Position numbers and translations under genes: made by a program
Notes under the pieces: model-generated
The model's input: only the letters and a program-made list of their open reading frames with translations
What the model was told of the DNA's origin: nothing
Database searches by the model: none
Assembly (NCBI RefSeq): GCF_000626715.1
Contig: NZ_AQRA01000002.1
Span: 310,001 to 374,000 of the forward strand
Origin: Aquimarina atlantica
GTDB lineage: Bacteria > Bacteroidota > Bacteroidia > Flavobacteriales > Flavobacteriaceae
Direction: 5' to 3'
DNA: 64,000 nucleotides
In this document: one piece after another, positions 38,711 to 64,000 of the stretch
Layout: each line of letters starts with the position of its first letter
Numbering within the stretch: position 1 is the first letter of the stretch

Positions 38711-38724
38711 CTAGTAATAACGAG

Positions 38725-38750
38725 GCTTCACAGAAATGTGAAGCTTTTTT
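38725..38750 (+). terminator. intrinsic terminator after tRNA-Ala
   Basis: GCTTCAC / GTGAAGC stem with a AGAAAT loop followed by TTTTTT. Confidence 0.85.
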
Positions 38751-38794
38751 ATTTTGATAGTAGTGGAGTATTGTGGTGGGTTTTAACAAAATAA

Positions 38795-39331: not shown

Positions 39332-39336
39332 TTTAA

Positions 39337-39636: not shown

Positions 39637-39645
39637 TATAATATT

Positions 39646-40533: not shown

Positions 40534-40904
40534 ATTTTTGATTTTACCAATTTAATACAATCAGATACTTTAGTTAATTTTTCACATTCAATTACTGTGA
40601 CAGTTTTATTGGACTTTAAATCTCTTACTATTCTTTGGAAATATCGCTTTAAAGATTTTTTATGGTAAATAGTTAATCCTAAATCTGTTTTCAAGCTTTG
40701 GTTATCTTTTATATAATCAATTTCGAATCCACTTAAATCAGATAATGCTTCGTAAACTCTTCTTTTAATATAACCATCCTTATCAGTTTTTCCGATTACT
40801 AGTTTTACTAAATTGTCCAACTCTCTAATTTGACTTCCTTGAACTATTGTTATAAATTTTTCCAATTCTTTTTGGTTCAGGGATAATATTATTTTTTGTT
40901 TCAT
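40530..40904 (-). CDS. small helical protein, ACP-like C-terminal half, 124 aa
   Basis: A 124 aa protein of no firm family. The second half (IKDNQSLKTDLGLTIYHKKSL followed by ECEKLTKVSDCIKLVKS) follows the helix pattern of acyl carrier proteins, but the DSL serine that carries phosphopantetheine is replaced. If homologous, it cannot be a normal carrier. The first half is a lysine-rich helical region (LNQKELEKFITIV). It is 53 bp downstream of the MBL gene and overlaps the barrel gene. Confidence 0.45.
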   Translation of the reverse strand: MKQKIILSLNQKELEKFITIVQGSQIRELDNLVKLVIGKTDKDGYIKRRVYEALSDLSGFEIDYIKDNQSLKTDLGLTIYHKKSLKRYFQRIVRDLKSNKTVTVIECEKLTKVSDCIKLVKSKI

Positions 40905-40957
40905 GAAATACCTGTATTATATAGTTTTTATTTTATCAAATTCATGTATGATAGTAA

Positions 40958-42544: not shown

Positions 42545-42792
42545 GATAAAAATATTAGAATCAATATTACATAACAATAGCTTCTAACAAAATACCCAAT
42601 AAAAGGTATATTCGAATTAATAAAACTACATTCAAATCAATTCCGAAAATTCCAGCATATAGGTTTTTTCGGTTATTATTGAGTTATTAAATAGGAATTA
42701 TAAGGGGGAGGGGTAATTATATTTTGGTTACTTCCTTTCGGAAAAACTTCGATAATAAAGTTAATATAATTTATTTGGGAATACAAAATTTT

Positions 42793-43317
42793 TTATTCAA
42801 AAATTCTCATATTCAACCCTTTAGAAACAATTTCAGCATCAATATAATGTTTGTTTAACGTTCTCATATTATCATGAGAGCTTAATTCAATCATATCATC
42901 TCCAGCAATTTTATTCAAGTAGGACAAGTATGTTTTTCTGAGTGTTTTGAATTTTTTTTGAGCGACATTAGGGAAGGCTTGACCATAGTAATGACTAAAA
43001 CCTTTAGATAATGCATTTATTATGGTCCTATGCTTTACTTTTCGATTAGGTTCAATAATATAAAGCTCACTGTCTTTGAAATCATCATATCCAAGCTCAT
43101 TTAACAGGTCAAATAAATCAGGCCCAATAGGGATAACTTTCTTTTTGAATATTTTTTCAGTGCATCTTTCAACTTTTAGGTTATCTACTACTAAAATCAA
43201 ACAACCTGCTTTATCACTATATTGTACGTCGTTCCATGATAAATCAACTAATTCTTCCCGTCTTAATGTAAAAGATTGTATTGAGCTTTTAAAAAGTAAA
43301 GGGTACATCATATACAA
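42793..43317 (-). pseudogene. tyrosine recombinase remnant (catalytic half only)
   Basis: The 174 codons correspond to the C-terminal part of a Bacteroidota-type integrase: SFTLRREELVDLSWNDVQY (Arg I region), KKKVIPIGPDLFDLLNELGY, KTLRKTYLSYL (second Arg, but the usual preceding His is Lys), LSSHDNMRTLNKHYID (third motif and tyrosine). The N-terminal arm and core-binding domains, about 200 residues, are missing: an in-frame stop lies about 11 codons upstream of TTG 43317 and only AT-rich DNA follows. It is a decayed integrase and a sign that this stretch was acquired. Confidence 0.68.
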
Positions 43318-43470
43318 ACATGTATAATCCGAAGAATTGTATTCATTTTAAATTAGATAAACCCTATTTAAGTGTTATTTAATTTTTCGAATTGTAAACG
43401 AGTTAAAACTATATAATAAGAATCCTAAATATGCAATAAATAATTCAATATTTTATATATAAAATTATTA

Positions 43471-43866
43471 CTAAGAATTTGAACCGACTAATGCCCTAAT
43501 TTTATCTAAATATGATTTAGCTACTTTTGCTTTTTTTGGGCTAACACGATAATTACTATATCTACAGGTACGACAGAAATCATGAAGGCTTCTATATAAA
43601 TTACCAGCACCTTCGATTCTTTGCTCAACTAGTTTTATAGTAGATTGATGTTTGGAAATTTTAATGCCTTCATTTAAAGATTTAGAAAAATATTGCTCAA
43701 AACTAGAATATTCATAACCTTCTTCATCTCTAAATGGGAATATTTCTTCTTGAACTAGGTGTAATGCAGAATAAAAAGCTGTCGTAATTACCCAATCATA
43801 AAACTTACCATCCTTTAAAAGAAATTCACATGCTTCAAAATTATGCTGAGAATGAGATTTAGACAT
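43471..43866 (-). CDS. HEPN-like protein, 131 aa
   Basis: A 131 aa all-helical protein. The N-terminus (HNFEACEFLLKDGKFYDWVITTAFYSALHLVQEEIF) has the N-x-A...DW....FYSALH pattern of HEPN domains. A cysteine-rich segment (LHDFCRTCRYSNYRV) takes the place where HEPN toxins carry RxxxxH. Catalytic competence as an RNase is therefore uncertain. It is the second gene of a two-gene unit whose genes overlap by one base, as in toxin-antitoxin or abortive-infection pairs. Confidence 0.6.
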   Translation of the reverse strand: MSKSHSQHNFEACEFLLKDGKFYDWVITTAFYSALHLVQEEIFPFRDEEGYEYSSFEQYFSKSLNEGIKISKHQSTIKLVEQRIEGAGNLYRSLHDFCRTCRYSNYRVSPKKAKVAKSYLDKIRALVGSNS

Positions 43867-44357
43867 TAGTTAGTTTCAGACATTTTATAGTCCATAAAAA
43901 ATCCATCTGAAACCAATAAACTTGTATTGAACTGCCCATCTGCTCTATCAGAGAACAAAAACATTAAATTGTAATATTTATCGTTCGTCACTTCTTCTTC
44001 AATAGTTGCCGCAAAATCGTAACTTACTAGAAAATCTTCAGAAATAAATTCATCTTCTGGTAAGGTGATTAGAATAACAAAATCATTGAAAGACTTAATT
44101 TTTAAATGGGCAGAAATTGGATTTAACTTCCTTTTCTTTAAAAATGACAACATTTTATCAGTATAAACTGCCGATTTATTAATGTTTTCATTTAGTTTAT
44201 CAACAAAAATTTGTTTAGTTTCTTTGATTCCTTCTTTTTTCCCTTTTAGATAAGCATCAATAACATCATCATTAGTGAATATAGAATTTTTATCAACAGA
44301 AACCTCCCAAGTTTGAGAATCACCTAATCCGCTTGTATTAGTTGTAGTTGTTTCCAT
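43866..44357 (-). CDS. partner of the HEPN-like protein, 163 aa
   Basis: A soluble 163 aa protein: a disordered Thr/Ser-rich N-terminus, a helical segment (DAYLKGKKEGIKETKQIFVDKLNENINKS) and a beta-rich second half (FNDFVILITLPEDEFISEDFLVSYDFAATIEEE). No nucleotidyltransferase motif is visible, so it is not a classical MNT antitoxin. It is expressed from the promoter at 44369-44397. The function of antitoxin or sensor is inferred only from the pairing. Confidence 0.6.
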   Translation of the reverse strand: METTTTNTSGLGDSQTWEVSVDKNSIFTNDDVIDAYLKGKKEGIKETKQIFVDKLNENINKSAVYTDKMLSFLKKRKLNPISAHLKIKSFNDFVILITLPEDEFISEDFLVSYDFAATIEEEVTNDKYYNLMFLFSDRADGQFNTSLLVSDGFFMDYKMSETN

Positions 44358-44824: not shown

Positions 44825-47800
44825 TTAATCATTAGCTTCAATCCATACTAATTCTTTATTATTTCTGCCAAAAAGAACTGCTTTCTTTCCTTTATATCTA
44901 AATGGCCGTATTGCTTTTACATCTCCTTTAATTAAGATGCCACTTTTAGCTGCCGGAACGGGAACAAAACTATGTCCTCCATTATTTTTAAGTAGTAATC
45001 CGTAACTGGCGTCATTTCTCGGAGTTTCAATTTCTGATTGATATAAGTTTCCGGCAACAAGAATATCCTTTAATCCATCATCATCAAAATCATCAATATG
45101 AATATCGTTTATAGAAGATAGCTGTGCTTGTTTGGGAAGCTCTACAATGTTGAATTTTCCATCTCCTAAATTTTCTATAAAAACAGAAGCAAAGGTATAC
45201 GCTTTGGCGTGTAACGCTTTTTCTAATTTTTCTTGCCCATATACCTGAATCAGGTCGGCAGAACCAAAATCTTCATAGGTTGGAAATTTTTCTTTTATAA
45301 ATGGCATTTGAAGCGAGGTACATTCTCGACCACGAAGCGGAAACAAATTTCCATTGTTATAATATCCCAGTACAATATCATTGGTCCCATTATCATCAAA
45401 ATCATTTGCATAAATCTCGAAAGGCTCTTTAGTAGATGCTTTATATTTATAATTTAACCCTAAGTTACCTACTACATAATCCATATCTCCGTCCTGATCA
45501 AAATCAGCACTATTAATCGAATTCCACCAACCATTAGTATTCTCAAACAAAGTGGCATCTTTTTTTAAGGTTTTATCTGTGTTTCTAAATACTGTTATAG
45601 GCATCCATTCTCCAACTATAACCAAATCAGATAAGCCATCCTGATCAAAATCTGTCCATAGTGCATCTGTGACCATACCGATTTCAGACAATTCTGGAGC
45701 AATCGTTTTGGTAATATCTTTAAAAACACCATTGTTATTTTCTAATAAATAACTTGCTCCGGGATAAGGATATTTTTGTGGTGTATGCCTACTCCCAACA
45801 AATACATCCAGGTCTCCATCCTGATCATAATCAAATGGTTTTATGCAGCTGCCACTGGATACTATCTTTGGTAATCTATTATTTTCTTTAACAAAATTTC
45901 CATTCGTATTTATATAGAAGCGATCCTGATACATACTATGATTTGCTGGCCATTCATTCCCGCCACTTACCACATATAAATCTAAATCATTATCACCATC
46001 TACATCAAAAAATTGGGCAGACACATCTTCAAAAGCTTTTTCTTTTTCCCATAGTGTACTGCCTGAAGATTGAAAAGAACCATCTGGTTGTTGTGTATAC
46101 AATGCTGCAGGATGATCTTTTGCTCCGCCAATATAAAAATCATCCAATCCATCCATATTTATATCTCCAACTGCAAGTGCAGGCCCAAACTGAGACATTT
46201 TATGCGGCAATAAACTTTCTTTTGCATAGTCATCATACTCATTTTCGATATGCTTATGAGGTATATTTATATCTTTTGTAATATTCGTAAAAAGTGTTAC
46301 CACAGTATCCTTCTTTTTTTCATTTGTAAGAGTGGCATTGTTGTGATTAACAATAATTCTTTTATTAATTTCTGGATGGTTAATCACCTCAACTTTGTTA
46401 TCTGGCCAGGTTACAGTGACTTTTTGTACCTCGGTATTATTATCCAATCCAATATGTATAATAGGTGCTACTGCAGATTGATATCCTCTTGTGGGATAGT
46501 TTTCGAATACCTGAGTTGTCTTTTCTGTTTGCACAGCAATACGCGTACCTATTCCAAAGGGGTTTTGGGAGTCTCCTTTACATTGAAACTGAACATAATT
46601 CTTATTCCTGGTATTATTTTGTAGAATAGTAGCTTTTTGATCAATATTATTAATAACCAGATCCAAATCTCCATCGTTGTCTAAATCTGCATAAGCTGCA
46701 CCATTAGAAAAAGTAGGATTATCAATTCCCCAGGATGTTGATGTCTTTGAAAAAGTTAAATCCCCGTTGTTTTTAAAAAAATAGTTTCTGGTTTTTCGTT
46801 GTGGCGTTTTACGAACTAACTCTTCGATTACTTTTTTGATGCTTTCCTTATTTTTATTTGCTTGCTCTAATCGTTTTAGTTTATATTTTCTAAAATCATT
46901 ATTTCTAAAATCTCTTTTAAGGCCATTGGTAATAAATAGGTCCTTTAATCCATCATTATCAAAATCTGCAAATAGTGGTGCCCAACTCCAATCGGTATTT
47001 GATATTCCTGCAAGGTGTGCAATTTCACTAAAACATTCGTCAGAATTATTAAGCTGTAACGCATTAAACATATATTGATAATGAAATCCATTATCTACAG
47101 CATGATTAAATGCTTTTGGATTCATCCCACTCATACTGGTTTTGATGCTATAATTATCTTCGGCTACCATATCTAATGAAATGATATCCAACAGCCCGTC
47201 ATTATTAATATCTGCAATATCGGTTCCCATCGAAAAATTAGAGGTATGCCCGATAGATGATTTTAGTTTTTCTATAAACGTGCCATTTCCAGTATTAAAA
47301 TAAAGATAATCATGTTCTATATAATCGTTTGCTACATATATATCGGGCCATCCATCTTGATTAAGGTCTCCAATAGAAACTCCTAAACCAAAACCCAAAG
47401 AATTTTGTATGATTCCTACCTGATTAGAAACATCGGTAAATTTTCCTAAGTTATTTTGATACAATCGATCTCCTGCCAAGTCATTCTTTTCACTTTTATA
47501 GTCTTCTGGATTATTGGTATTAATAGGAGATACATTATGATTTAATAAAAACATATCGAGATCACCATCCTTATCATAATCAAAAAATGCAGCTTGTGTG
47601 CTATATCCCGAAAAATTAAGCCCATATTCTGCTGCTGCTTCTGTAAATGTCCCGTTTTTATTGTTTATGAAAAGCTCATTTTCTCGATTTTTAGCTTTTC
47701 CCTTACCAGACTTACACACATAAATATCTAACCAACCATCGGCATTGATATCTACCATGGTGACTCCTGTTGTCCATCCAAAAGAACCTTTTACTTTTGC

Positions 47801-48133
47801 TTGCTTTGTATGATCTTCGAATCTAAAATTGCCTTTATTGATATAGAGCTTATTTTCTTTGAGATTAGAGGTAAAATAAATATCGGATAACCCATCATTA
47901 TTAACATCCCCGATAGCAACACCACCACCATTATAGAAATATTCATATACCATACTATTCATAGCACTACTTTCTGGTATCTGGTTTATAAAATGAACCC
48001 CCGAATGATCTGGTAAAACCGAAGTAAATAATGATGTACTTATTTCAGAATGTGAGTTTTGTTGAGAAGCTTCTTTGTTATGGCATGACACCATTAGCAA
48101 TATGCTCATTATAACTTGAAGTATCCTCATCAT
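44825..48133 (-). CDS. VCBS/FG-GAP repeat lipoprotein (CRTAC1/ASPIC-UnbV type)
   Basis: A 1102 aa surface lipoprotein with start ATG 48133 (MMRILQVIMSILLMVSCHNKE; a six-residue longer frame also exists). About a dozen FG-GAP/VCBS calcium-binding repeats of the form D-x-N/D-x-D-G-x-x-D (DVNNDGLSDIYF, DINADGWLDIYV, DYDKDGDLDMFL, DLDNDGDLDLVI, DFDQDGDMDYVV) build two propellers. Between them lies an ASPIC/UnbV module (GIGTRIAVQTEKTTQ...GYQSAVAPIIHIGLD...VTVTWPDNK). Such proteins commonly follow susCD pairs in marine Bacteroidetes and probably aid surface binding of substrate. It is third in the susC-susD-VCBS operon. Confidence 0.88.
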   Translation of the reverse strand: MMRILQVIMSILLMVSCHNKEASQQNSHSEISTSLFTSVLPDHSGVHFINQIPESSAMNSMVYEYFYNGGGVAIGDVNNDGLSDIYFTSNLKENKLYINKGNFRFEDHTKQAKVKGSFGWTTGVTMVDINADGWLDIYVCKSGKGKAKNRENELFINNKNGTFTEAAAEYGLNFSGYSTQAAFFDYDKDGDLDMFLLNHNVSPINTNNPEDYKSEKNDLAGDRLYQNNLGKFTDVSNQVGIIQNSLGFGLGVSIGDLNQDGWPDIYVANDYIEHDYLYFNTGNGTFIEKLKSSIGHTSNFSMGTDIADINNDGLLDIISLDMVAEDNYSIKTSMSGMNPKAFNHAVDNGFHYQYMFNALQLNNSDECFSEIAHLAGISNTDWSWAPLFADFDNDGLKDLFITNGLKRDFRNNDFRKYKLKRLEQANKNKESIKKVIEELVRKTPQRKTRNYFFKNNGDLTFSKTSTSWGIDNPTFSNGAAYADLDNDGDLDLVINNIDQKATILQNNTRNKNYVQFQCKGDSQNPFGIGTRIAVQTEKTTQVFENYPTRGYQSAVAPIIHIGLDNNTEVQKVTVTWPDNKVEVINHPEINKRIIVNHNNATLTNEKKKDTVVTLFTNITKDINIPHKHIENEYDDYAKESLLPHKMSQFGPALAVGDINMDGLDDFYIGGAKDHPAALYTQQPDGSFQSSGSTLWEKEKAFEDVSAQFFDVDGDNDLDLYVVSGGNEWPANHSMYQDRFYINTNGNFVKENNRLPKIVSSGSCIKPFDYDQDGDLDVFVGSRHTPQKYPYPGASYLLENNNGVFKDITKTIAPELSEIGMVTDALWTDFDQDGLSDLVIVGEWMPITVFRNTDKTLKKDATLFENTNGWWNSINSADFDQDGDMDYVVGNLGLNYKYKASTKEPFEIYANDFDDNGTNDIVLGYYNNGNLFPLRGRECTSLQMPFIKEKFPTYEDFGSADLIQVYGQEKLEKALHAKAYTFASVFIENLGDGKFNIVELPKQAQLSSINDIHIDDFDDDGLKDILVAGNLYQSEIETPRNDASYGLLLKNNGGHSFVPVPAAKSGILIKGDVKAIRPFRYKGKKAVLFGRNNKELVWIEAND

Positions 48134-48244
48134 TTTACTGTTTGTGACCATAGTATATAATGTATAATAGCATAAACACCTAAAAATAATAAAATTCTTA
48201 GGTGCTTACTAGTTTTAATAACTAACTCAACTTTCGGGGTTTCT

Positions 48245-49765
48245 TTACCATCCAGGATTTGGTTTAAGATTGGTATTAATATTTATTTCCTGCAATGGTA
48301 TGGGGTATAAAATATGTTTATCCTGAAAATTCTCTACAAATGGTTTATTGTGATTTTCGAGTGTTGTTTTTATAGATTCTGTAGCTGTACTTCCTCTTTG
48401 CCATCTATAAAGATCAAACCAACGAATACCAAATTCCATGGCTAACTCAACTGGGCGTTCATGATGTCGAATTTGATCTCTTAGTTGGCTTTGAGTCATT
48501 GTTCCTAATGGAGCAGCTTTGCCTCGTTCTCTAACTTTATTGATCTCTATTATCGCTTGATCTGTTTTGCCATTTTCATTCAACGCTTCGGCATACATTA
48601 GTAAAACATCGGCATATCGAATTAAAGCAATGTTTGTTCCATTATAAAAACTTACATCCTGATTAAAAGCGTATTTTTTGAAATATTTAGGATGATTAAG
48701 ATCACTAGATACAGCACTATACGCAACAACTGCATCGGCATCTCTACTATACATTTCAGAATTAGGGTCGTCAAAGAAAATACTTTCGTATACTCTTTCA
48801 CTAATTTCTCCTCCAGTAGTTAAATCTGTTTTCATTTCTTCAACCAACCAATCAGAAGGGTAGAATAATTCCCACCCACCAAAGGCATAAGGAGAGACTT
48901 GAAAATTAAAAACCTGTCGTTCGTCATTACCATTAGCGCGATCTCCAGAAAATTGAATCTCAAATATGCTTTCATTTCCATTTTCGGCAGCTCCATTAAA
49001 ATTATCTGCATAATTCGTTAATAAAGAATATCCCATACCGGTTACTTCTCCTAGTTTTACTTCTGCCTGGCTCCATTTTTCCTGAAACAAATATGCTTTA
49101 CCCAATAATGCCTTTGCAGCACCTTGTGTTGCTCTTCCTTTCCATTCTGATGAATGCTCTGTCAATAAATTTGGTTCTGCTTCTGCGAGATCTTTTTCTA
49201 TCTGCTCCCATATTTTATCCGGAGTTGTCTGGGATACAAAAAGACGATCTAATTCGGTTTCATAAGTAGTTACCAAAGGCACATTTTCAAAACCGGTTAC
49301 CAGCCAAAAATAGTACAGTGCTCTTAAGAATTTTGCTTCGGCTACAATCGTATTCTTATCTACCTGAGATAGTGCTTGCATTTCTGGTATTCTTTGTATG
49401 ATCTGATTAGCTCGCCCTATACCTGCATAGCTACTTTGCCATATATTGTATGGACCTGTATCTTCTGTGGTATTAGAGAAACTTGCCAGGGATCGACTAT
49501 ATGTTTCTCCTGTATTATTGGTCACATCATCAGCACGATATGCCATTGCGGTATATACCTCTTCAAAGAAAGCCCACTTACTTCCACTTGCACTATGCAT
49601 TGCACCATAAGTAGCTGTTAAGGCTTGTAGTGCATGTTCTTTTGTTTGCCAAAAACTAGAATCGGTCAAATTCTCATTGTTAGGAACGTTCAAAAACTCA
49701 TCACTACAAGAGTGCAATATTCCTATACAAAGAACTATAATTAATAAATAACTAATTTTTTTCAT
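48245..49765 (-). CDS. RagB/SusD-family glycan-binding lipoprotein
   Basis: A 506 aa surface lipoprotein that captures glycan for the SusC channel. The signal ends in GILHSCSDEFLN. The SusD fold is shown by the N-terminal SSFWQTKEHALQALTATYGAM, TPR-like helices (YNIWQSSYAGIGRANQIIQRIPE, AEAKFLRALYYFWLV) and the C-terminal RYADVLLMYAEALNENG, INKVRERG, ERPVELAMEFGIRWFDLYRW and LYPIPLQEININ motifs. It pairs with the susC gene 29 bp upstream. Ligand not predictable from sequence. Confidence 0.95.
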   Translation of the reverse strand: MKKISYLLIIVLCIGILHSCSDEFLNVPNNENLTDSSFWQTKEHALQALTATYGAMHSASGSKWAFFEEVYTAMAYRADDVTNNTGETYSRSLASFSNTTEDTGPYNIWQSSYAGIGRANQIIQRIPEMQALSQVDKNTIVAEAKFLRALYYFWLVTGFENVPLVTTYETELDRLFVSQTTPDKIWEQIEKDLAEAEPNLLTEHSSEWKGRATQGAAKALLGKAYLFQEKWSQAEVKLGEVTGMGYSLLTNYADNFNGAAENGNESIFEIQFSGDRANGNDERQVFNFQVSPYAFGGWELFYPSDWLVEEMKTDLTTGGEISERVYESIFFDDPNSEMYSRDADAVVAYSAVSSDLNHPKYFKKYAFNQDVSFYNGTNIALIRYADVLLMYAEALNENGKTDQAIIEINKVRERGKAAPLGTMTQSQLRDQIRHHERPVELAMEFGIRWFDLYRWQRGSTATESIKTTLENHNKPFVENFQDKHILYPIPLQEININTNLKPNPGW

Positions 49766-49794
49766 TGTTCTGTTTTTTTAATTTTTTCTAACTA

Positions 49795-52700
49795 TTACAT
49801 CGATACGTTAATACCGAATATAAAGGATCTGGTTAATGGGTAGAATCCTCTGTCAACTCCTCTATTAAATGTTCCTCCATTCCCCAGACCTGGATCAAAA
49901 CCTGAATAATCTGTAATGGTAAATAGATTATTGGCAGTTGCATACACTCTGATTCTCGAAACAGGAATCTTACTTATTGCAGATTCTGGAATCGAATATC
50001 CTATTTGTAGGTTCTTTAATCGTAAGTATGATCCATCTTCAAGAAAATAACTAGAAGGTCTAATGTTATTGTTAGGATCACCAAATGCGTTTCTTGGTAT
50101 ATTGGTATTCGTATTCTGTGGCGTCCAGGCATTAACTAAATCAGAAGACACATTATTTCTATCGGTTCTGTATAACCACATTTTTACACCATTGTAGATT
50201 TTATTTCCCTGGGTTCCCTGAAAGAATATACTAACATCGAAGTTTTTGTATGTAGCATTAAGAGTTAATCCATATTCAAAATCTGGAAGTCCGCTACCCA
50301 TATATTTTTTATCATCATCGTTTAATTCACCATCCCCATTTACATCGGTAAATCGTAAATCTCCCGGTGCGGCATCTGGTTGAACTCCATGTGCATCAAT
50401 TTCTGCCTGGTTTTGAAATATTCCATTGGCTTCAAATAAATAAAATCGACCGATTTCTCCTCCTACTTCAGTACGAGTGGTGGGAAAATTATTAAATTCT
50501 ATAAAACCATCAGTACGAGCTTCGCCCTCTACTCCAAGTTTTGTAATCTTATTTTTTGAAGTACTTAAGTTTGCAGTAACATCAAAAGAAAAATCTTTGT
50601 ATTGTTTACTGCTATAGGTAGCAGAAAACTCCCATCCTTTATTTTCTAAATCTCCTGCATTGGTCAAAGGGTCTGTTGTAATTCCAGAAGTACCAGGAAC
50701 TTTAGTAAACACTAACATATCTGTAGTCTTAGCATTAAAATAATCAAAAGAAGCTTTGATTCTATTATCTAATAAACCAAGATCAATCCCAACATTGGTA
50801 GTTGCCGTTTCTTCCCATCGAATATCAGGTGTTGGTAATGAAGTAGCAATTGCCCCAGATAGTATCGCTTGCGTTACATCCTCTCCAAATGGATAGTTTA
50901 ATTGCTGTCCTCCAGAACCGATCCTTGCCAAAAATAAATGATTAGGGATAAGCTGATTTCCTAATGTACCATAGCTAAAACGAGGTTTTAGCTGAGTAAA
51001 TAAATCCGACTTAAAAAAGTTTTCGTTATGAACTGCCCAACCCAATGAAACTGAATAGAAAGTACCGTATTGATTCTTAGAACTAAAGCGCGACGAACCA
51101 TCTCTTCTGGCACTGGCCTGCACATAATATCTATTGGCATAATCATAACTTAAACGACCAAAAACAGATTGTAATGTACTAGAAAAATTTCGGCCAAAAG
51201 AAGAAGCATCTCCTATCCCGGCACTTAGCGCTTGTATTGCATCAGATGGTAATCTATTATTACTACCTCCTGCCGAGTTAAATACATTTTCTTCTTTAGA
51301 ACCTCCAACAAGGATATCAAAATCGTGATCTCCAAATGTTTTGACATAGTTTAATGTATTGTTTAATGTCCAACTGGTAGTTCTTGATCTGGTTTCAGAT
51401 AAAAACGGATCTTCATTAATAGATTGTGGACCAAAGTTGAATGCGGGCTGAAAGAAAAAGAAGTGCTCGTTTTCTACATTTAATCCGTATTGAAATTGAT
51501 AACTCAATCCATCAAATAATTTTAAGTCGGCTGCAATATTAAATTGAGTGTATTCATCACGATCAATACGATCGGTTAATTCTCCTTGTCCGATTGGATT
51601 TCCCGAACCTAAACCAGTTGCTGGCGTAGCAAATCCATTTAAAGAATTTGCATCATAAATTGCTTTATGAGGTAATTGAGAATAGATGTTTAAAAACGGA
51701 GAAAAGCTAGCGTTACCTCCATCAAGAGGTTCAAAAATACTTCGTCTTTTTTCTTTGGCATAAGCCAAACCAGGAGAAATCTTCAAACGGTTATTCAACA
51801 ATTTGATATCCATATTTAATCGGGTATTAAACCTATTGAAATCTGTATTAATTACAGTTCCTGAATTGGCAAAATAACCTGCCGAAAAATTATAGGTAGT
51901 ATTTTCTGAACCTCCCGAAACCGAAATATCATGTTTCTGCTCAAAAGCATTTTTGTAGTAGGCGTCTGCCCAATCAGAATCTGCATATTGTTCTCCATTG
52001 GTAAGATATGGAGCAGGAGTTTCTCCTACATTAGCATATGCTTCTAGTTTTATCTGATCGTGTTGAGCTCTATTTGCTACCTTTATATTATCATCAATAG
52101 AGTGTGTACTTATGTATGAATTTACGACAACCCTCGGGTCTCCTCTTTTTCCTCTTTTTGTAGTAACGATAACCACTCCATTAGAAGCTCTAGATCCATA
52201 AATGGTTGCAGCAGATGCATCCCTAAGAATACTAATGTTTTCGATATCAGCAGGGTTTACATAGGATAAATCTCCCGGAACCCCATCAATTACAAACAAA
52301 GGGTCATTATTATTTACAGTACCCATACCACGAATTCTGATTACCGGAGCACTCCCTGGGGCACCACTCGCTATTGCTACATTAAGCCCGGCTACTTGCC
52401 CTTGTAAAGATGTTGCTATATCGGCAGTAGGTATTTTTTGTATCTCTTCTATATTTACTGAAGTAATAGCAGCAGTTAATTCTGATTTTTTTTGCGTTCC
52501 ATAACCCACCAAAACAACTTCTCCTAAGCTCTGGGCGTCCTCTTCAAGGCCAATGTTAATTATTGTTTGATTTCCGACCAGAACTTCTTTAGTTACAAAT
52601 CCTAAATATCTATATACTAATGTTGTTTGCGAATCGGAAACTTCAATTGAATAATTTCCATCGAAATCAGTTTGTGTTCCCTGAGTTTCGTTTCCTTTAA

Positions 52701-52860
52701 TTGTAATTGTAACTCCTGGTAAAGGAGAACCGCTACTATTTTCTGAAACATTACCTGTTATTACTACATTTTGCGCATAAGTATTAGCGAATCCAAATAG
52801 AGTAAATCCAAGCAGAGTTAAAAGAAATATAGTATTGGTTTTTCTTTTTTTTGCTTTCAT
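49795..52860 (-). CDS. SusC/RagA-family TonB-linked outer membrane transporter
   Basis: A 1021 aa outer membrane channel with start ATG 52860; a GTG two codons earlier is open. A signal peptide ends near FANTYAQ. Then follow the carboxypeptidase-regulatory-like domain (VVITGNVSENSSGSPLPGVTITIKG), the TonB box-like VVLVGYGTQKKSELT, the plug with VRIRGMGTVNNNDPLFVIDG and ATIYGSRASNGVVIVTTK, and a long barrel ending in FIFGINVSM. It imports oligosaccharides or glycopeptides captured by the SusD partner, energised by TonB. It is divergent from gntR with an operator between. Confidence 0.96.
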   Translation of the reverse strand: MKAKKRKTNTIFLLTLLGFTLFGFANTYAQNVVITGNVSENSSGSPLPGVTITIKGNETQGTQTDFDGNYSIEVSDSQTTLVYRYLGFVTKEVLVGNQTIINIGLEEDAQSLGEVVLVGYGTQKKSELTAAITSVNIEEIQKIPTADIATSLQGQVAGLNVAIASGAPGSAPVIRIRGMGTVNNNDPLFVIDGVPGDLSYVNPADIENISILRDASAATIYGSRASNGVVIVTTKRGKRGDPRVVVNSYISTHSIDDNIKVANRAQHDQIKLEAYANVGETPAPYLTNGEQYADSDWADAYYKNAFEQKHDISVSGGSENTTYNFSAGYFANSGTVINTDFNRFNTRLNMDIKLLNNRLKISPGLAYAKEKRRSIFEPLDGGNASFSPFLNIYSQLPHKAIYDANSLNGFATPATGLGSGNPIGQGELTDRIDRDEYTQFNIAADLKLFDGLSYQFQYGLNVENEHFFFFQPAFNFGPQSINEDPFLSETRSRTTSWTLNNTLNYVKTFGDHDFDILVGGSKEENVFNSAGGSNNRLPSDAIQALSAGIGDASSFGRNFSSTLQSVFGRLSYDYANRYYVQASARRDGSSRFSSKNQYGTFYSVSLGWAVHNENFFKSDLFTQLKPRFSYGTLGNQLIPNHLFLARIGSGGQQLNYPFGEDVTQAILSGAIATSLPTPDIRWEETATTNVGIDLGLLDNRIKASFDYFNAKTTDMLVFTKVPGTSGITTDPLTNAGDLENKGWEFSATYSSKQYKDFSFDVTANLSTSKNKITKLGVEGEARTDGFIEFNNFPTTRTEVGGEIGRFYLFEANGIFQNQAEIDAHGVQPDAAPGDLRFTDVNGDGELNDDDKKYMGSGLPDFEYGLTLNATYKNFDVSIFFQGTQGNKIYNGVKMWLYRTDRNNVSSDLVNAWTPQNTNTNIPRNAFGDPNNNIRPSSYFLEDGSYLRLKNLQIGYSIPESAISKIPVSRIRVYATANNLFTITDYSGFDPGLGNGGTFNRGVDRGFYPLTRSFIFGINVSM

Positions 52861-52922
52861 AATCACATTGTTTTTTGGTGATAACCCCTTATTTTACAAG
52901 GGTTTTAACGTAAAATATTGGC

Positions 52923-52930
52923 GCAATATA
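52923..52930 (-). promoter_or_regulatory. likely susC -7 element
   Basis: The minus strand reads TATATTGC here, close to TAnnTTTG, with a TTG (complement of 52951-52953) about 20 bp upstream that touches the operator dyad. This places the dyad over the susC -33 box. Confidence 0.4.
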
Positions 52931-52952
52931 GAATTTTAGTTTTTAAAAAGGC

Positions 52953-52970
52953 AACTAGTACCTACCAGTT
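52953..52970. promoter_or_regulatory. GntR-type operator between susC and gntR
   Basis: AACTAGTA-CC-TACCAGTT is an 8+8 dyad with a single mismatch. It is centred between the divergent genes and abuts the -33 region of both promoters, so one bound dimer could control both transcripts. The form ACTxGTAnnTACxAGT fits sites of GntR regulators with sugar-binding C-domains. Assignment to this regulator is inference. Confidence 0.6.
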
Positions 52971-52990
52971 TTTTAAAAGAAAAAATATGA

Positions 52991-52998
52991 TATATTTG
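52991..52998 (+). promoter_or_regulatory. gntR -7 element (TATATTTG)
   Basis: TATATTTG matches TAnnTTTG, only 4 bp before ATG 53003, so the gntR mRNA is probably leaderless. The operator dyad ends 20 bp upstream, over the -33 position, indicating autoregulation. Confidence 0.6.
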
Positions 52999-53002
52999 TA
53001 GC

Positions 53003-54001
53003 ATGAAAACAATTAATGTAGTAGATAATATAGGTGTCCCTAAATACAAACAGATCATTTCATCAATTGAAAGTGCTATCTTATCTGGGGAGTATAAACG
53101 TGGAGATAAACTACCATCGATTAACAGTGTAAAGCTTCGGTTCTCCCTTTCGAGAGATACCGTATTACTCGCCTACAATGATTTAAAAGTAAGAGGAATT
53201 GTAAATTCTGTTCCTGGTAAAGGGTACTACGTGAAAAGTGAAAGTATTGAAATCGCACAAAAGATTTTTTTACTGTTTGACGAATTAAATGCCTTTAAAG
53301 AAGATTTGTATAATTCTTTTTTAAAAAGTTTAAATAACAATGTAGAGGTAGATATTTATTTTCATCATTTCAATTATGATGTATTTAGCAAATTGATTTA
53401 TGACAATATTGGGAACTACAATTATTACGTTATCATGCCTGCCAACCTAAATGATATCCCTTCTGTTTTAGATATATTACCTCAAGACAAAGTGTATATA
53501 CTCGATCAAACTCGTCAAGAGCTTGCTCAATACCCTGCTATTCATCAAAATTTTAAGAAAGATATTCTAACTGGTCTGGTAAAGGGGCTTCATCTCTTAA
53601 AAAAATATCAAAAACTAGTACTCCTTTTTCAGGAACAGAAACAACCTTCAGGAATGCTCGAGGGTTTTGAAATGTTTTGCAACACGTATCATTTTAACAG
53701 TGAAGTAATTGATTCTCTCGAAGAAAGAACATTAACTAAAGGAGAAGTTTACATAATCCCAGATGATAGAAGCCTTATTCGTATCATAAAAAAAATTAAA
53801 GAAGTAGAGTTTACTCTTGCAAAAGATATCGGTATCATATCTTATAATGATACACTTCTTAAAGAAATTGTCGAAGGAGGTATAACCACTATTTCTACTG
53901 ATTTTAATAAAATGGGAGAGCGCTTAGCCGAAATGATCATGAATAAAGAACAAATTAGAATCGAAAACATAAATAATCTAATCTTAAGAAACTCTCTTTA
54001 G
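53003..54001 (+). CDS. GntR-family regulator with sugar-binding-like C-domain
   Basis: A 332 aa regulator. The N-terminal winged helix (PKYKQIISSIESAILSGEYKRGDKLPS, RFSLSRDTVLLAYNDLKVRGIVNSVPGKGYYV) is GntR type. The C-terminal 240 residues match the LacI-like periplasmic-binding fold (YVIMPANLNDIPSVLDILPQDKVYILDQ, KGLHLLKKYQKLVLLF, EVYIIPDDRSLIRIIKKIKE, GIISYNDTLLKEIVEGGITTISTDF). This domain order is found in Bacteroidetes sugar regulators. It is the first gene of the plus-strand operon and faces susC, so it likely controls both sides in response to a monosaccharide. Confidence 0.9.
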   Translation: MKTINVVDNIGVPKYKQIISSIESAILSGEYKRGDKLPSINSVKLRFSLSRDTVLLAYNDLKVRGIVNSVPGKGYYVKSESIEIAQKIFLLFDELNAFKEDLYNSFLKSLNNNVEVDIYFHHFNYDVFSKLIYDNIGNYNYYVIMPANLNDIPSVLDILPQDKVYILDQTRQELAQYPAIHQNFKKDILTGLVKGLHLLKKYQKLVLLFQEQKQPSGMLEGFEMFCNTYHFNSEVIDSLEERTLTKGEVYIIPDDRSLIRIIKKIKEVEFTLAKDIGIISYNDTLLKEIVEGGITTISTDFNKMGERLAEMIMNKEQIRIENINNLILRNSL

Positions 54002-54004
54002 CTT

Positions 54005-54910
54005 TTGTATCAAATAAATCACATAAAAGAACAAATACACCCTAAATATCATATTGAACTTTTAACCGCAGATCAAAGTTCGAGTGCTATAATAGCTTTA
54101 AATTTAGGAGGAAGTGTGCAAAGACTATCTATTAATGGTAAAAGTATAATAGCAGGGTTAGAGTTATTAGATTATAATACTACCTATGCTTCTGCTGTTT
54201 TATTTCCGTTTGCCAATAGAGTAAAGAATGGAAAATATAGTTTTGAAGATAAACAGTACACTTTAGACCTAAATGTAAAAGAAGAAAACAACGCTTTACA
54301 TGGTCTGATATATAATAAAACCTTCGAATTTATAAAAGAAGAAATATGTGTTGATCATGCTACGGTAACTATTGGCTATGAAGAGACCAAAAGGGTGAAA
54401 GGGTTTCCTTTTAAATACGCTATATATTTAACATACACTTTATCTGCCAATGCCTTAGAGCTCTCTGTAGCGGTAATCAATAATGACAAAACTCCTTTTC
54501 CTTTTACTATTGGCTGGCATCCATATTTTTTAAGTAGTGATCTACACAAAAGTTTTCTTACTGTTGAAAGCAATAAAAAATTAGTGTTCGACAAGGATAT
54601 GATCCCTATGAAGATTAAGGATATTATTATAAAAGGGCCTATCCAGATCAAAGACAGACTTTTTGATGATTGTTATATTCTTAATACTAATTCAGCAAAA
54701 TTTAATACTCCTGATTATTGTTTGATGCTTGAGTCTTCCTCTGAAGAAAATTATTTGCAAGTATTCACCCCTGAAAAAAGAAATATAATCGCCCTAGAAC
54801 CCAAAACTGGCCCCTCTAATAGTTTTAATAACAAGTTAGGATTAAGCATCTTAAATCCAAAAGAAACCTATAAGATAAATTGGAAAATTAAACTTCAGAA
54901 CAATGAATAA
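54005..54910 (+). CDS. aldose 1-epimerase family protein
   Basis: Interconverts alpha and beta anomers of a hexose such as galactose or glucose. 301 aa, start TTG 54005, four bases after gntR. Catalytic landmarks are the first His in ALHGLIYNK, the second in GWHPYFL, and the C-terminal Glu in IALEPKTGPSNSFN. It overlaps the next gene by 8 bp. With a glucosidase and a galactosidase in the same operon, it probably processes glucose or galactose released by them. Confidence 0.86.
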   Translation: MYQINHIKEQIHPKYHIELLTADQSSSAIIALNLGGSVQRLSINGKSIIAGLELLDYNTTYASAVLFPFANRVKNGKYSFEDKQYTLDLNVKEENNALHGLIYNKTFEFIKEEICVDHATVTIGYEETKRVKGFPFKYAIYLTYTLSANALELSVAVINNDKTPFPFTIGWHPYFLSSDLHKSFLTVESNKKLVFDKDMIPMKIKDIIIKGPIQIKDRLFDDCYILNTNSAKFNTPDYCLMLESSSEENYLQVFTPEKRNIIALEPKTGPSNSFNNKLGLSILNPKETYKINWKIKLQNNE

Positions 54911-56906
54911 AAATGCTCTATTTATACTAATTTCTGTTCTCATATCATGTTTTGGTTGTAAAAAACAAACTGAGATAACTGCACCCGTTGTTACTCCAAA
55001 AAAGTATCTCGCATATAGTAAAAACATTCTTAATTATAGCGTTACTCCAAAAGATTCTATCGACAAGTCTAGTTTGATGTTTTCTGATCAGGGAGCATGG
55101 TTTGCCTATAGTTTTCCTGATTCAATTCATCCTTCTCCCGGGTTCTCTGGGCCATTTTTAATGACGCAGCAAAATGGAATCTGGAGCAGCGAGATACTTG
55201 TAAAATTAAATATTGAAGATGTTTCATGGACTGAATATAAAACAACCGCATACAATAGTCATTTAGAACAAACTTTTACAAATGATGATCTAATACTAAA
55301 ACAAAAACTGGTATTTGCCTCTGGACATTCCGCATTAATACAGTATACGCTTACCAACAAAACTGATAGAACTATTGAGTTGACCTATAACTGGAAAAAC
55401 CAGCAGCTTTTAACAAAAACACTAAGATTAGAATCATCAGAAAATAAGATTACCATACACTCTTCAAAATCAAATGCTACCGGGTATATTGTATTTCCTG
55501 ATGAAACAAAAATCACAAGCACCGATAGCACTTATTCTGCTAAAAATCAGCAACTACATTTAAAACCAAAAACCAGTAAAGAGATTGTAGTTTCACAGAC
55601 TTTTATTTTTCCCGAATACTCCTGGGAAGAGGAGCAAAAAACGATCGCTACTATTGATTTTGACACTATTTTAAATAAACGTAGCATCGAAAAAGAAACG
55701 CAGTTAACCTCTTTGATCGACGCAAGAAAAGAAAAGTTTCAAGATGACAAATATGCTAAATTAATGGCCAAAGCGCATCTTACCTTACAAAACAACTGGC
55801 GTATTCCTGCTGGAGAAATACAACACGAAGGATTGTTCCCCAGTTATCACTACAAGTGGTTTAACGGGTTTTGGTCATGGGATTCATGGAAACACGCTGT
55901 TGGATTATCTTATTATAATACAGAATTAGCCAAAAAACAAATGCGGTTAATGTTCGAATTTCAGAACGAAGATGGTTTTGTTGCGGATTGTGTATACAGA
56001 GATACAAGTATAGAAGATCATAACTATCGAGATACAAAACCACCATTATCTGCATGGGCAGTAGTTAAAATTTATGAAAAAGATCATAATCTTGATTTCG
56101 TAAAAGAATTATATCCTAAACTTAAAAAATATCATTATTGGTGGTATCAAAAACGAGATCATGATAAAGATGGACTATGCGAGTATGGATCTACCGATGG
56201 CAGCCTTGTTGCTGCCAAGTGGGAAAGTGGTATGGATAACGCCATTCGTTTTGACGATTCAAAAATTCTTAAAAACGAAAAAGGAGCCTATTCTTTAGAT
56301 CAGGAAAGCGTTGATCTTAATGCATACCTCTACGCAGAAAAACTGTACCTGGAAAAACTTGCAGAAGCCATTCAAAAAAATGATGATGTAAAACAATACC
56401 AGGCAGAAGCAAAAAAACTAAAAGAAACAATTCAGAACCAATTCTATGACCCTGCAGATGGTTGGTTTTATGACACAAACCTGGACGGAACAACATTTAT
56501 AAAAGGAGAAGGTAGCGAAGGATGGACACCTCTTTGGGCAAATGTAGCAACCCAAAAACAAGCAGAATCCGTAAAAAACAAGATGATGAATCCCAGTAAA
56601 TTCTATACCAAAATGCCTTTTCAGACCATGTCTGCCGATCACCCAAAGTTTGATCCTTTAAAAGGGTATTGGAGGGGCCCTAATTGGCTGGATCAATCTT
56701 ATTTTGGTGTAAAAGGATTACGTAATTATGGATTTGATAAAGAAGCAGATCAGGCTACGGTACAAATCATTGAAGGAGCAGAAGGATTGTTAGAAAAAGG
56801 AAAAGCAATTCGAGAAAATTATCACCCTTTGACTGGGCAAGGCTTACATGCACAAAATTTTAGCTGGAGTGCAGCACATATCATAATGCTATTAATAAAA
56901 GAATAG
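54903..56906 (+). CDS. GH63 alpha-glucosidase, YgjK-like, lipoprotein
   Basis: A 667 aa lipoprotein (signal ending SVLISC) of the YgjK branch of glycoside hydrolase family 63, which removes terminal alpha-glucose with inversion. The N-terminal 250 residues form a beta-sandwich. The (alpha/alpha)6 barrel shows NGFWSWDSWKHAVGLSYYN, NYRDTKPPLSAWAVVKIYEK, YHYWWYQKRDHDKDG, KWESGMDNAIRFDD with the probable acid Asp445, and AIRENYHPLTG with the base Glu638, then NFSWSAAHIIML. I recall YgjK accepting Glc-alpha linkages to galactose, but this should be checked. It is cotranscribed with the mutarotase and the fusion gene that starts directly after its stop. Confidence 0.87.
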   Translation: MNKNALFILISVLISCFGCKKQTEITAPVVTPKKYLAYSKNILNYSVTPKDSIDKSSLMFSDQGAWFAYSFPDSIHPSPGFSGPFLMTQQNGIWSSEILVKLNIEDVSWTEYKTTAYNSHLEQTFTNDDLILKQKLVFASGHSALIQYTLTNKTDRTIELTYNWKNQQLLTKTLRLESSENKITIHSSKSNATGYIVFPDETKITSTDSTYSAKNQQLHLKPKTSKEIVVSQTFIFPEYSWEEEQKTIATIDFDTILNKRSIEKETQLTSLIDARKEKFQDDKYAKLMAKAHLTLQNNWRIPAGEIQHEGLFPSYHYKWFNGFWSWDSWKHAVGLSYYNTELAKKQMRLMFEFQNEDGFVADCVYRDTSIEDHNYRDTKPPLSAWAVVKIYEKDHNLDFVKELYPKLKKYHYWWYQKRDHDKDGLCEYGSTDGSLVAAKWESGMDNAIRFDDSKILKNEKGAYSLDQESVDLNAYLYAEKLYLEKLAEAIQKNDDVKQYQAEAKKLKETIQNQFYDPADGWFYDTNLDGTTFIKGEGSEGWTPLWANVATQKQAESVKNKMMNPSKFYTKMPFQTMSADHPKFDPLKGYWRGPNWLDQSYFGVKGLRNYGFDKEADQATVQIIEGAEGLLEKGKAIRENYHPLTGQGLHAQNFSWSAAHIIMLLIKE

Positions 56907-63096
<6,190 letters not shown>

Positions 63097-63102
63097 GAAA
63101 CT

Positions 63103-64000
63103 ATGCAGTTTATCACATTTATAGGGTTTACATTATTAGTAGCAATAATAGCGTATATAAAAAGCAGAAAAACAGATGAATCTTCTTCTGACGGGTATTT
63201 TCTAGGTGGAAGAAGTTTAACAGGCATCGTTATCGCAGGGTCGTTATTATTAACCAATCTATCAACCGAACAAATCGTAGGCTTAAACGGAGCTGCCTTT
63301 AAAGAAGGGATACTGGTTATGGCATGGGAAACTCTGGCTGCAATCGCTATGGTAGTTACCGCAGTATTTTTATTACCCCGATATCTAAAAGGAGGAATAA
63401 CCACTGTTCCCCAATTTTTACAAAGACGATACGATAAAACCTCCAAAACAATCACCTCTGCATTATTTCTAAGTGGATATGTGGTGGTGTTATTACCTAT
63501 CGTTTTATATTCTGGAGCATTGGCCATTAATACAATGTTTGATGTACCTGACATGTTAAATGTTAATGAAACTACTGCTTTATGGATAACCGTTTTCGGA
63601 ATCGGTATCATAGGGTCTATTTATGCCATTTTTGGTGGTTTAAAAGCAGTCGCAGTATCCGATACCATTAATGCAATAGGGTTACTGGTCGGAGGATTGT
63701 TAATACCAATATTTGGATTAATGGCCATTGGTGATGGCAGTATTTTTGAAGGAATTGCTACATTAACACAATCTCATCCCGAAAAATTCAAAGCATTAGG
63801 AGGGCCAGAATCTTCAATTCCGATAGGAACTATATTCACTGGTATGATGTTGGTTCAATTGTTTTATTGGGGAACCAATCAGGCGATTATCCAAAGAGCA
63901 TTAGGAGCTAAAAACCTAAAAGAAGGCCAAAAAGGCTTGTTATTAGCTTCGTTTATAAAAATACTAGGGCCACTAATTGTTGTATTACCGGGATTAATTG
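63103..64000 (+). CDS. SSS-family sodium:solute symporter (partial, runs off window)
   Basis: The first 299 codons of a membrane symporter of the SLC5/SSF family. It starts MQFITFIGFTLLVAIIAYIK. The FLGGRSLTGIVIAGSLLLTNLSTEQIVG and NQAIIQRALGAKNLKEGQKG stretches are family landmarks; SSF proteins of PULs often import the monosaccharide product. It begins 7 bp after the galactosidase stop, so it belongs to the operon. The 3' end lies beyond the window and cannot be judged. Galactose, glucose or an amino acid conjugate is possible as substrate. Confidence 0.9.
   Translation, partial: MQFITFIGFTLLVAIIAYIKSRKTDESSSDGYFLGGRSLTGIVIAGSLLLTNLSTEQIVGLNGAAFKEGILVMAWETLAAIAMVVTAVFLLPRYLKGGITTVPQFLQRRYDKTSKTITSALFLSGYVVVLLPIVLYSGALAINTMFDVPDMLNVNETTALWITVFGIGIIGSIYAIFGGLKAVAVSDTINAIGLLVGGLLIPIFGLMAIGDGSIFEGIATLTQSHPEKFKALGGPESSIPIGTIFTGMMLVQLFYWGTNQAIIQRALGAKNLKEGQKGLLLASFIKILGPLIVVLPGLI

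What the first reader, a model, noticed from the sequence alone, without database searches (positions are those of the whole stretch)
44825..64000. PUL-type locus that may degrade glucosyl-galactosyl-hydroxylysine of collagen
The operon combines a YgjK-like GH63 alpha-glucosidase, a GH2 beta-galactosidase, a mutarotase, a GntR regulator, SusCD with a VCBS lipoprotein, an SSS symporter, and a fusion of an APH kinase to an AGXT2L-type phospho-lyase. Collagen hydroxylysine carries Glc-alpha1,2-Gal-beta. The set matches a stepwise pathway: glucose removal, galactose removal, phosphorylation of 5-hydroxylysine, and cleavage to aminoadipate semialdehyde, ammonia and phosphate. I know of no described bacterial locus of this kind. 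The gene content is seen directly; the substrate is inference. Ethanolamine-containing glycans are the main alternative.
Basis: partly seen in the sequence, partly recalled or inferred. Interest (0 to 1): 0.88.

Follow-up and report, generated by a model that had tools for sequence, protein, structure and literature searches.

The report
Bacterial collagen sugar and hydroxylysine locus
A marine flavobacterium carries a gene cluster that, by most of the genomic evidence gathered here, strips the glucose-galactose sugar from collagen's hydroxylysine and then breaks down both the sugar and the amino acid; no enzyme has been tested yet.

Summary
In detail: a SusCD/VCBS block and, divergently, GntR - aldose epimerase - YgjK-type GH63 - kinase/lyase fusion - LacZ-type GH2 - SSF symporter, continuing past the window with galactokinase, DUF4440 and GalT.

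The collagen reading is supported by independent evidence. GH63, fusion and GH2 form a conserved run in Flavobacteriaceae (both glycosidases in 36 of 55 well-covered named loci). In 21 of those 55, hydroxyproline-catabolism genes lie nearby, in three as one run Pyr2C reductase - 3-Hyp dehydratase - GH63 - fusion - GH2. In 397 family genomes, 75 of 89 with the full fusion have a 4-hydroxyproline epimerase, against 83 of 251 without; the GH63 type occurs in 41, all with a kinase-lyase fusion or fragments of one. YgjK, the nearest solved GH63, was crystallised with Glc-alpha-1,2-Gal, the collagen disaccharide. The own genome also has a collagenase, genes for both hydroxyproline routes and the enzyme for the predicted hydroxylysine product.

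Against: no activity is shown, sequence does not exclude phosphoethanolamine, M9 collagenase is rare (2 of 397), and 6 of 55 loci lack all expected partners. The fusion itself is a known family.

The parts
44825..48151 (-). VCBS/FG-GAP + ASPIC/UnbV lipoprotein, third gene of the SusC-SusD-VCBS block
   Evidence: FG-GAP_3 256.8 bits, UnbV_ASPIC 66.2 bits
48245..49765 (-). SusD-type surface lipoprotein
   Evidence: SusD_RagB 127.5 bits
49795..52866 (-). SusC-type TonB-dependent importer
   Evidence: TIGR04056 899 bits over cut-off 368
53003..54001 (+). GntR regulator with a periplasmic-binding-protein-like C-terminal region
   Evidence: GntR 46.7 bits over cut-off 27; Peripla_BP_3 25.6, just under its cut-off 26.5
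54005..54910 (+). aldose 1-epimerase (mutarotase), no hydrophobic N-terminus
   Evidence: Aldose_epim 149 bits
54903..56906 (+). YgjK-type GH63 lipoprotein, proposed to remove the alpha-1,2-glucose
56907..59948 (+). three-domain fusion: APH kinase (31-266), M23 metallopeptidase (440-537), PLP phospho-lyase (604-1000); proposed hydroxylysine kinase and 5-phosphohydroxylysine phospho-lyase
59911..63096 (+). LacZ-type GH2 beta-galactosidase lipoprotein (likely start 59956)
   Evidence: NF052611 1008.8 bits over cut-off 999
63103..64000 (+). SSF sodium/solute symporter, cut by the window end (complete at L009:7104-8681)
   Evidence: NF007790 482 bits over cut-off 401

Best explanation
A polysaccharide-utilisation-type locus for collagen's O-glycan and the amino acid that carries it. 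SusC/SusD (with the VCBS lipoprotein) bring glycosylated hydroxylysine or short glycopeptides into the periplasm. The GH63 lipoprotein removes the alpha-1,2-linked glucose, the GH2 lipoprotein then removes the beta-galactose from hydroxylysine. Galactose enters by the SSF symporter and goes down mutarotase, galactokinase and GalT. Hydroxylysine in the cytosol is phosphorylated at O5 by the APH domain and cleaved by the PLP domain to 2-aminoadipate semialdehyde, ammonia and phosphate; a P6C/allysine dehydrogenase encoded elsewhere oxidises the semialdehyde. The M23 domain may free hydroxylysine from small glycine-containing peptides. Shown: gene content, domains, conserved residues, conserved gene order, association with hydroxyproline catabolism. 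Inferred: every substrate, the order of steps, the transport, the role of M23.
For: Conserved run: of 67 named loci GH63 in 42, GH2 in 46; of 55 with at least 7.5 kb on both sides, 36 have both. GH63 on the fusion's strand in 41 of 41 loci measured, gap under 150 bp in 32; downstream GH2 on its strand in 42 of 43, gap under 350 bp in 38. Hydroxyproline genes near the fusion in 21 of the 55, two or more kinds in 20; representatives score as 4-Hyp epimerase (573 > 376) and Pyr2C reductase (387 > 322), with 3-Hyp dehydratase the best match but below cut-off. One run Pyr2CR-t3HypD-GH63-FUS-GH2 in L037, L044, L051. 397 genomes: 4-Hyp epimerase in 75 of 89 full-fusion carriers and 83 of 251 without (p 2e-17, holds in four size classes); within 20 kb in 23 of 56 measurable genomes, 0.63 expected. 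GH63 type in 41 genomes: 35 with the full fusion, 4 with the two-domain form, 2 with fragments, 0 of 251 others. GH63 and GH2 inside a Hyp cluster without the fusion, L134. In L117 a GH42 beta-galactosidase stands between GH63 and fusion. YgjK solved with Glc-alpha-1,2-Gal. Lyase domain 48% identical to human ethanolamine-phosphate phospho-lyase in the structural match. Own genome: M9 collagenase, Hyp clusters, P6C dehydrogenase 837 > 730.
Against: No activity is tested. Lyase homology alone does not separate phosphohydroxylysine from phosphoethanolamine: the nearest solved relative is named for phosphoethanolamine, the second, as I recall, acts on it too, and no PHYKPL or HYKK sequence was on hand. 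6 of 55 well-covered loci have no GH63, GH2, Hyp, Xaa-Pro/S37 or GalK/GalT gene (L011, L019, L047, L055, L061, L072). M9 collagenase is over its cut-off in only 2 of 397 genomes, so the protease that supplies substrate is mostly unknown. In the window's own genome the hydroxyproline genes are on other contigs. Of 15 two-domain loci opened, only one is beside GH63. 14 of 89 fusion carriers lack the epimerase. Related genomes are not independent, so the p values overstate. No hydroxylysine importer was identified.
Confidence: 0.82

Rival explanations
1. Ethanolamine reading: the fusion phosphorylates ethanolamine and cleaves phosphoethanolamine to acetaldehyde; the glycosidases trim an ethanolamine-bearing glycan or glycolipid.
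For: The nearest solved lyase is the human ethanolamine-phosphate phospho-lyase; the second is the Arthrobacter phospholyase A1RDF1.
Against: 34 of 35 recurrent neighbour clusters identified, none a recognisable ethanolamine gene; hydroxyproline and galactose enzymes are among them. The kinase region matches APH, not the choline/ethanolamine kinase family, in Pfam. GH63 plus beta-galactosidase fit Glc-Gal.
Confidence: 0.06
2. Two neighbouring but separate functions: the glycosidases serve a plant or algal glucosyl-galactoside and the fusion serves a free amino acid; they cluster only as part of a catabolic island.
For: Two-domain (kinase-lyase) relatives are mostly not next to glycosidases: 1 of 15 loci examined. 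7 of 55 well-covered loci have Hyp genes and no GH63 or GH2.
Against: GH63 type found in 41 genomes, 41 of 41 with a fusion or fragments of one; in the 35 with the full fusion 22 pairs are under 100 bp apart. GH63 and GH2 also lie within a hydroxyproline cluster without the fusion (L134).
Confidence: 0.09
3. The pathway is right but the exact glycan differs: a variant glycosylated amino acid of marine invertebrate matrices (for example sponge or cnidarian collagen).
For: SusC and SusD differ strongly between loci (26-55% identity to the window's in some, 68-98% in others), which may mean different transported forms; many of the named sources are marine genera (habitat recalled).
Against: The YgjK complex and the galactose genes fit Glc-alpha-1,2-Gal.
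Confidence: 0.15

Closest known systems
Mammalian hydroxylysine catabolism: PGGHG (GH65), hydroxylysine kinase (HYKK) and 5-phosphohydroxylysine phospho-lyase (PHYKPL)
   Same: Same proposed chemistry: alpha-1,2-glucose removal, kinase, phospho-lyase. Passages on PGGHG seen in PMC8626586 and PMC11012932; Veiga-da-Cunha 2012 known to me by its title in reference lists and by recall.
   Different: Here glucose removal would be by GH63, not GH65; kinase and lyase are one protein with an M23 domain; galactosidase, importer and galactose genes are in one locus.
NF004799 / PRK06148 three-domain APH-M23-aminotransferase family
   Same: The fusion is a member by curated cut-off; the 25 plasmid relatives listed (alphaproteobacteria) are about 39-40% identical over 97-100% of the length.
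   Different: The family is named only 'hypothetical protein'. In the three annotated plasmid stretches opened the neighbours are amino acid transport genes and, in two, an Lrp/AsnC regulator, with no glycosidase listed.
E. coli YgjK (GH63)
   Different: YgjK's natural substrate is unsettled (passage of PMC9061262); I know of no hydroxylysine link for it.
FjGH65A, alpha-1,2-glucosidase of Flavobacterium johnsoniae
   Same: Another flavobacterial alpha-1,2-glucosidase, compared by its authors with PGGHG (passages of PMC8626586).
   Different: GH65, acts on kojibiose; different family.
Bacterial hydroxyproline catabolism (4-Hyp epimerase, D-Hyp dehydrogenase, Pyr4H2C deaminase, KGSA dehydrogenase; 3-Hyp dehydratase, Pyr2C reductase)
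   Same: These are among the recurrent neighbours; epimerase and reductase over curated cut-offs, the others by best match or context.
   Different: As I recall, known as pathways of their own; their joining to hydroxylysine and collagen sugar genes is the new point.

Membership tests
Polysaccharide utilisation locus (SusCD type) | adjacent SusC and SusD genes | tested here: met
   48245-52866
Polysaccharide utilisation locus (SusCD type) | co-located carbohydrate-active enzymes and regulator | tested here: met
   GH63, GH2, GntR, epimerase in one block
Polysaccharide utilisation locus (SusCD type) | induction by the target glycan | not testable with these tools
   no expression data
GH63, YgjK type | YgjK-like fold and catalytic Asp/Glu | tested here: met
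   D445 and E638 (YgjK D501, E727 by the alignment) invariant in 31 of 31
GH63, YgjK type | over NCBIfam cut-off for alpha-glucosidase PRK10137 | tested here: not met
   357 against 625 bits: related, not that equivalog
GH2 beta-galactosidase, LacZ type | curated equivalog cut-off | tested here: met
   NF052611 1008.8 > 999
NF004799 / PRK06148 fusion family | full-length match over the cut-off | tested here: met
   1145 > 1128, residues 6-1005
ETNPPL/PHYKPL phospho-lyases | nearest homology within class III PLP enzymes, PLP lysine kept | tested here: met
   6tor 458 bits, next 5g4i 309; K850 invariant in 35 of 35
ETNPPL/PHYKPL phospho-lyases | phosphohydroxylysine rather than phosphoethanolamine as substrate | not testable with these tools
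   needs assay; no PHYKPL sequence held
Hydroxylysine kinase (HYKK) | APH-type kinase with catalytic residues | tested here: met
   APH 67.9 bits; D205, N210, D227 invariant in 35 of 35
Hydroxylysine kinase (HYKK) | orthology to human HYKK | tested here: inconclusive
   no PDB sequence match for residues 1-350 up to E 1; HYKK sequence not held
Choline/ethanolamine kinase (PF01633) | Pfam match | tested here: not met
   only PF01636 reported for that region at E 0.001
M23 metallopeptidase | HxxxD and HxH zinc/catalytic motifs (motifs recalled) | tested here: met
   H441, D445, H495, H531, H533 invariant in 35 of 35
M23 metallopeptidase | peptidase activity | not testable with these tools
   no assay

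The most novel reading that the evidence does not exclude
Flavobacteria have a dedicated programme for the whole set of collagen's post-translational marks: Glc-Gal-hydroxylysine, 4-hydroxyproline and 3-hydroxyproline are dismantled by co-located genes, and the trifunctional fusion is a small assembly line in which an M23 peptidase releases hydroxylysine from collagen peptides, the kinase phosphorylates it and the lyase cleaves it.
Probability: 0.35. Interest if true: 0.87.

Novelty: new variant of a known kind. Interest (0 to 1): 0.78.

Why it matters
Collagen is among the most abundant animal proteins and its glycosylated hydroxylysine is chemically singular. How bacteria deal with it after proteolysis is, as far as my capped searches of an open-access library went, not described as a gene cluster. 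If right, it gives a function to a widespread 'hypothetical' fusion family, a likely natural substrate for a YgjK-type GH63, a tool enzyme set for collagen glycans, and a genomic marker for collagen consumption by flavobacteria. It also makes the question directly testable with three recombinant proteins (GH63, GH2, fusion).

Tried and rejected
Ethanolamine pathway: considered and set low; 34 of the 35 clusters found in four or more loci were identified and none is a recognisable ethanolamine gene (cluster c34 was not scanned), and the kinase is not PF01633. M9 collagenase as the general partner: rejected, 2 of 397 genomes over the cut-off, though the window's own genome is one of the two. A collagenase inside a related locus (L032, 16693-19839): the partial similarity to the own M9 protein is most likely in shared accessory domains; the ORF has weak reprolysin-like matches and no M9 match. 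Alphaproteobacterial relatives as a guide to substrate: four hits opened (the fourth record carries no annotation); contexts are amino acid transport, with Lrp/AsnC in two and MurR/RpiR in one, compatible but not telling. Kinase region against PDB by sequence: no match. Fusion fold search: the 50 rows shown are class III PLP enzymes led by 6tor, so kinase and M23 were not tested there. Two-domain form: in 15 of 15 loci opened both the kinase and the lyase part align and the M23 part does not; only L117 has GH63 beside it; yet 43 of 50 genomes counted as having it have the 4-Hyp epimerase.

Paper searches: one search gave 0 papers; some searches gave 11,425, 21, 8, 671, 30 and 85, of which 20, 15, 8, 10, 12 and 12 were listed. 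I saw listings, and passages of nine papers, none in full. No described bacterial Glc-Gal-Hyl locus was among what I saw; the library lacks most subscription papers.

Limits of the counts: one search was seeded with the window protein, so its 67 loci are near relatives; 2 of the 67 (L066, L073) have no ORF in the fusion cluster, because contig ends cut the gene; the GH2 cluster includes copies of only 37-40% identity (L041, L042, L043, L066). The lists were transcribed by hand; 7 genomes with partial fusions were kept apart; two genomes with kinase plus M23 but no lyase (G033, G259) count among the 251; of the 50 'two-domain' genomes 15 were opened. Epimerase places were printed only for the best matches, so distances cover 56 of 75 genomes. 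In one search three candidates per genome were scored.


Full report
What is there. The window is part of a 5.69 Mb genome; its nearest named relatives are Aquimarina strains (Flavobacteriaceae) with the same block, the fusion 97% identical in Aquimarina sp. AU58 and A. megaterium XH134. At 44825-52866 (-) lie VCBS lipoprotein, SusD and SusC; divergently from 53003 (+) run GntR regulator, aldose epimerase, YgjK-type GH63, a 1013-residue fusion, LacZ-type GH2 and an SSF symporter. The epimerase ends at 54910 after GH63 starts at 54903; the fusion starts on the base after GH63 ends. Outside the window the operon continues with galactokinase, a DUF4440 protein and GalT.

The fusion. Pfam finds APH (31-266), Peptidase_M23 (440-537) and Aminotran_3 (604-1000). 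The protein passes the cut-off of NF004799 (PRK06148), a subfamily named only 'hypothetical protein'. The lyase domain is closest to human ethanolamine-phosphate phospho-lyase (458 bits; 48% identity in the structural match) and next to the Arthrobacter phospholyase A1RDF1 (309 bits). In an alignment of 35 sequences (the window, 31 of the 67 named loci, 3 alphaproteobacterial plasmid loci) the kinase residues D205, N210, D227, the M23 residues H441, D445, H495, H531, H533 and the PLP lysine K850 are invariant; which residue does what is recalled from the families. None of 60 fusion ORFs tested has a hydrophobic N-terminus, while 42 of 42 GH63 and 49 of 50 GH2 ORFs do, 32 and 36 of them with a lipobox-like motif by a simple pattern. 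So the glycosidases are probably outside the cytosol and the fusion inside.

Co-occurrence elsewhere. One search gave 67 named loci. GH63 is in 42 and GH2 in 46; in the 55 with at least 7.5 kb on both sides, GH63 is in 38, GH2 in 39, both in 36. GH63 is on the fusion's strand in 41 of 41 loci measured, gap under 150 bp in 32; a downstream GH2 is on the same strand in 42 of 43, gap under 350 bp in 38. SSF (17 of 67), galactokinase (15), GalT (14) and a SusC (25) recur.

The unexpected part. Many of the other recurrent neighbours are hydroxyproline genes. Representatives score as 4-hydroxyproline epimerase (573 bits, cut-off 376), Pyr2C reductase (387, cut-off 322), best match trans-3-hydroxyproline dehydratase (371, below cut-off 540), D-amino acid dehydrogenase (262, below 383), an aldehyde dehydrogenase nearest 2,5-dioxovalerate dehydrogenase (127, below 750) and a DapA-family protein, plus two kinds of M24 peptidase nearest Xaa-Pro enzymes (below cut-offs) and two kinds of S37 peptidase. 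Reading the aldehyde dehydrogenase and DapA protein as KGSA dehydrogenase and Pyr4H2C deaminase rests on context and recall. At least one of the six enzyme kinds is in 21 of 55 well-covered loci, two or more in 20. L037, L044 and L051 have Pyr2C reductase, 3-Hyp dehydratase, GH63, fusion, GH2 in one run; L039 and L075 (Tenacibaculum) have the fusion inside a full Hyp cluster without glycosidases; L064 (a Saprospiraceae MAG, 51% identity) has fusion, D-Hyp dehydrogenase, epimerase, KGSADH, DapA. The remaining recurrent clusters are ordinary (GNAT, TPR, FecR, efflux, DUF4407 and so on).

Tests on a second sample. 4-Hyp epimerase over cut-off: 75 of 89, 43 of 50, 5 of 7, 83 of 251. In 56 genomes where both places were printed, 39 pairs share a contig and 23 lie within 20 kb; 0.63 expected. 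With the GH63 alignment at E 1e-150, 41 genomes match: 35 with the three-domain fusion, 4 with the two-domain form, 2 with fragments, 0 of the 251 others. In the 35, 33 pairs share a contig, 31 within 6 kb, 22 under 100 bp. Two genomes separate the parts: in L134 GH63 and GH2 lie between the 4-Hyp and 3-Hyp genes and the (two-domain) fusion is on another contig; in L137 GH63 lies beside both Hyp sets, fusion on another contig. In L117 a GH42 beta-galactosidase stands between GH63 and a two-domain fusion, which would keep the step and change the family.

The own genome. It has a 4-Hyp cluster (L110, 7182-14295; epimerase 584 bits, over cut-off), a 3-Hyp/Xaa-Pro peptidase cluster (L111, 3405-12360; Pyr2C reductase 390, over cut-off; dehydratase 365, below), an M9 collagenase with a T9SS tail (L112, 3411-8492) and an L-piperidine-6-carboxylate dehydrogenase over its cut-off (837, cut-off 730), the enzyme for the product of the proposed lyase.

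How it most likely works, and what is not shown. See the best explanation. All substrates are inferred. M9 is no general partner (2 of 397). Six of 55 loci have no expected partner. Kinship inflates the statistics. The lyase cannot be told from a phosphoethanolamine enzyme by sequence here.

Known and new. That bacterial kinase-lyase fusions exist was, as I recall, the clue by which Veiga-da-Cunha and colleagues found the human hydroxylysine kinase and lyases in 2012; the paper is not held. A 2025 review lists it among its gene-fusion references, and says in that part that fusions can reveal functions even when both partners are uncharacterised (passages of PMC12138971; the link between sentence and reference is inferred from their order). 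A 2026 paper mentions a Herbaspirillum operon annotated with a hydroxylysine kinase, an aminotransferase and an AsnC/Lrp regulator (one passage of PMC13275390). What I did not find in the listings is a bacterial locus that joins the glycosidases, the fusion and hydroxyproline catabolism. I rate it a new variant of a known kind: a SusCD locus whose target is a glycosylated amino acid of collagen.

Noticed in passing
window 58224-58517 (fusion residues 440-537): An M23 metallopeptidase domain with intact motifs sits inside a probably cytosolic kinase-lyase; its role is unexplained.
   Followed up: partly
L132:9352-11106, L133:9257-11005 (G033, G259): ORFs of 583-585 aa align to the kinase and M23 part of the fusion (about 40% identity) without the lyase.
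   Followed up: partly
50 of 397 genomes, e.g. L118-L131: A two-domain kinase-lyase form without M23, mostly away from glycosidases, yet 43 of 50 genomes have a 4-Hyp epimerase.
   Followed up: partly
L112:3411-8492 (own genome C4): M9 collagenase with PKD, GEVED and T9SS tail; one of 2 in 397 family genomes over the Pfam cut-off.
   Followed up: yes
L024:13123-16401, also cluster members in L034, L045: A 1092-aa PD40 plus amidohydrolase protein lies between fusion and GH2.
   Followed up: no
L110:9926-11653: A DUF885 protein recurs beside the 4-Hyp genes (8 of 67 loci); possibly a peptidase (guess).
   Followed up: no
L117:6320-8449: GH42 beta-galactosidase between GH63 and a two-domain fusion, apparently in place of GH2.
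   Followed up: partly
L016, L026, L028, L049, L074: Two GH2-cluster genes near the fusion instead of one.
   Followed up: no
window 38637-44357: Stretch after tRNA-Ala with low G+C (0.294 at 40001-44000) and five ORFs (39646, 40958, 42793, 43471, 43866) without Pfam matches; could be an acquired island.
   Followed up: no
window 29430-31712: Prolyl oligopeptidase (S9), ordinary.
   Followed up: no
L059 and L068: The fusion gene appears split over two ORFs in these assemblies; used as found.
   Followed up: no
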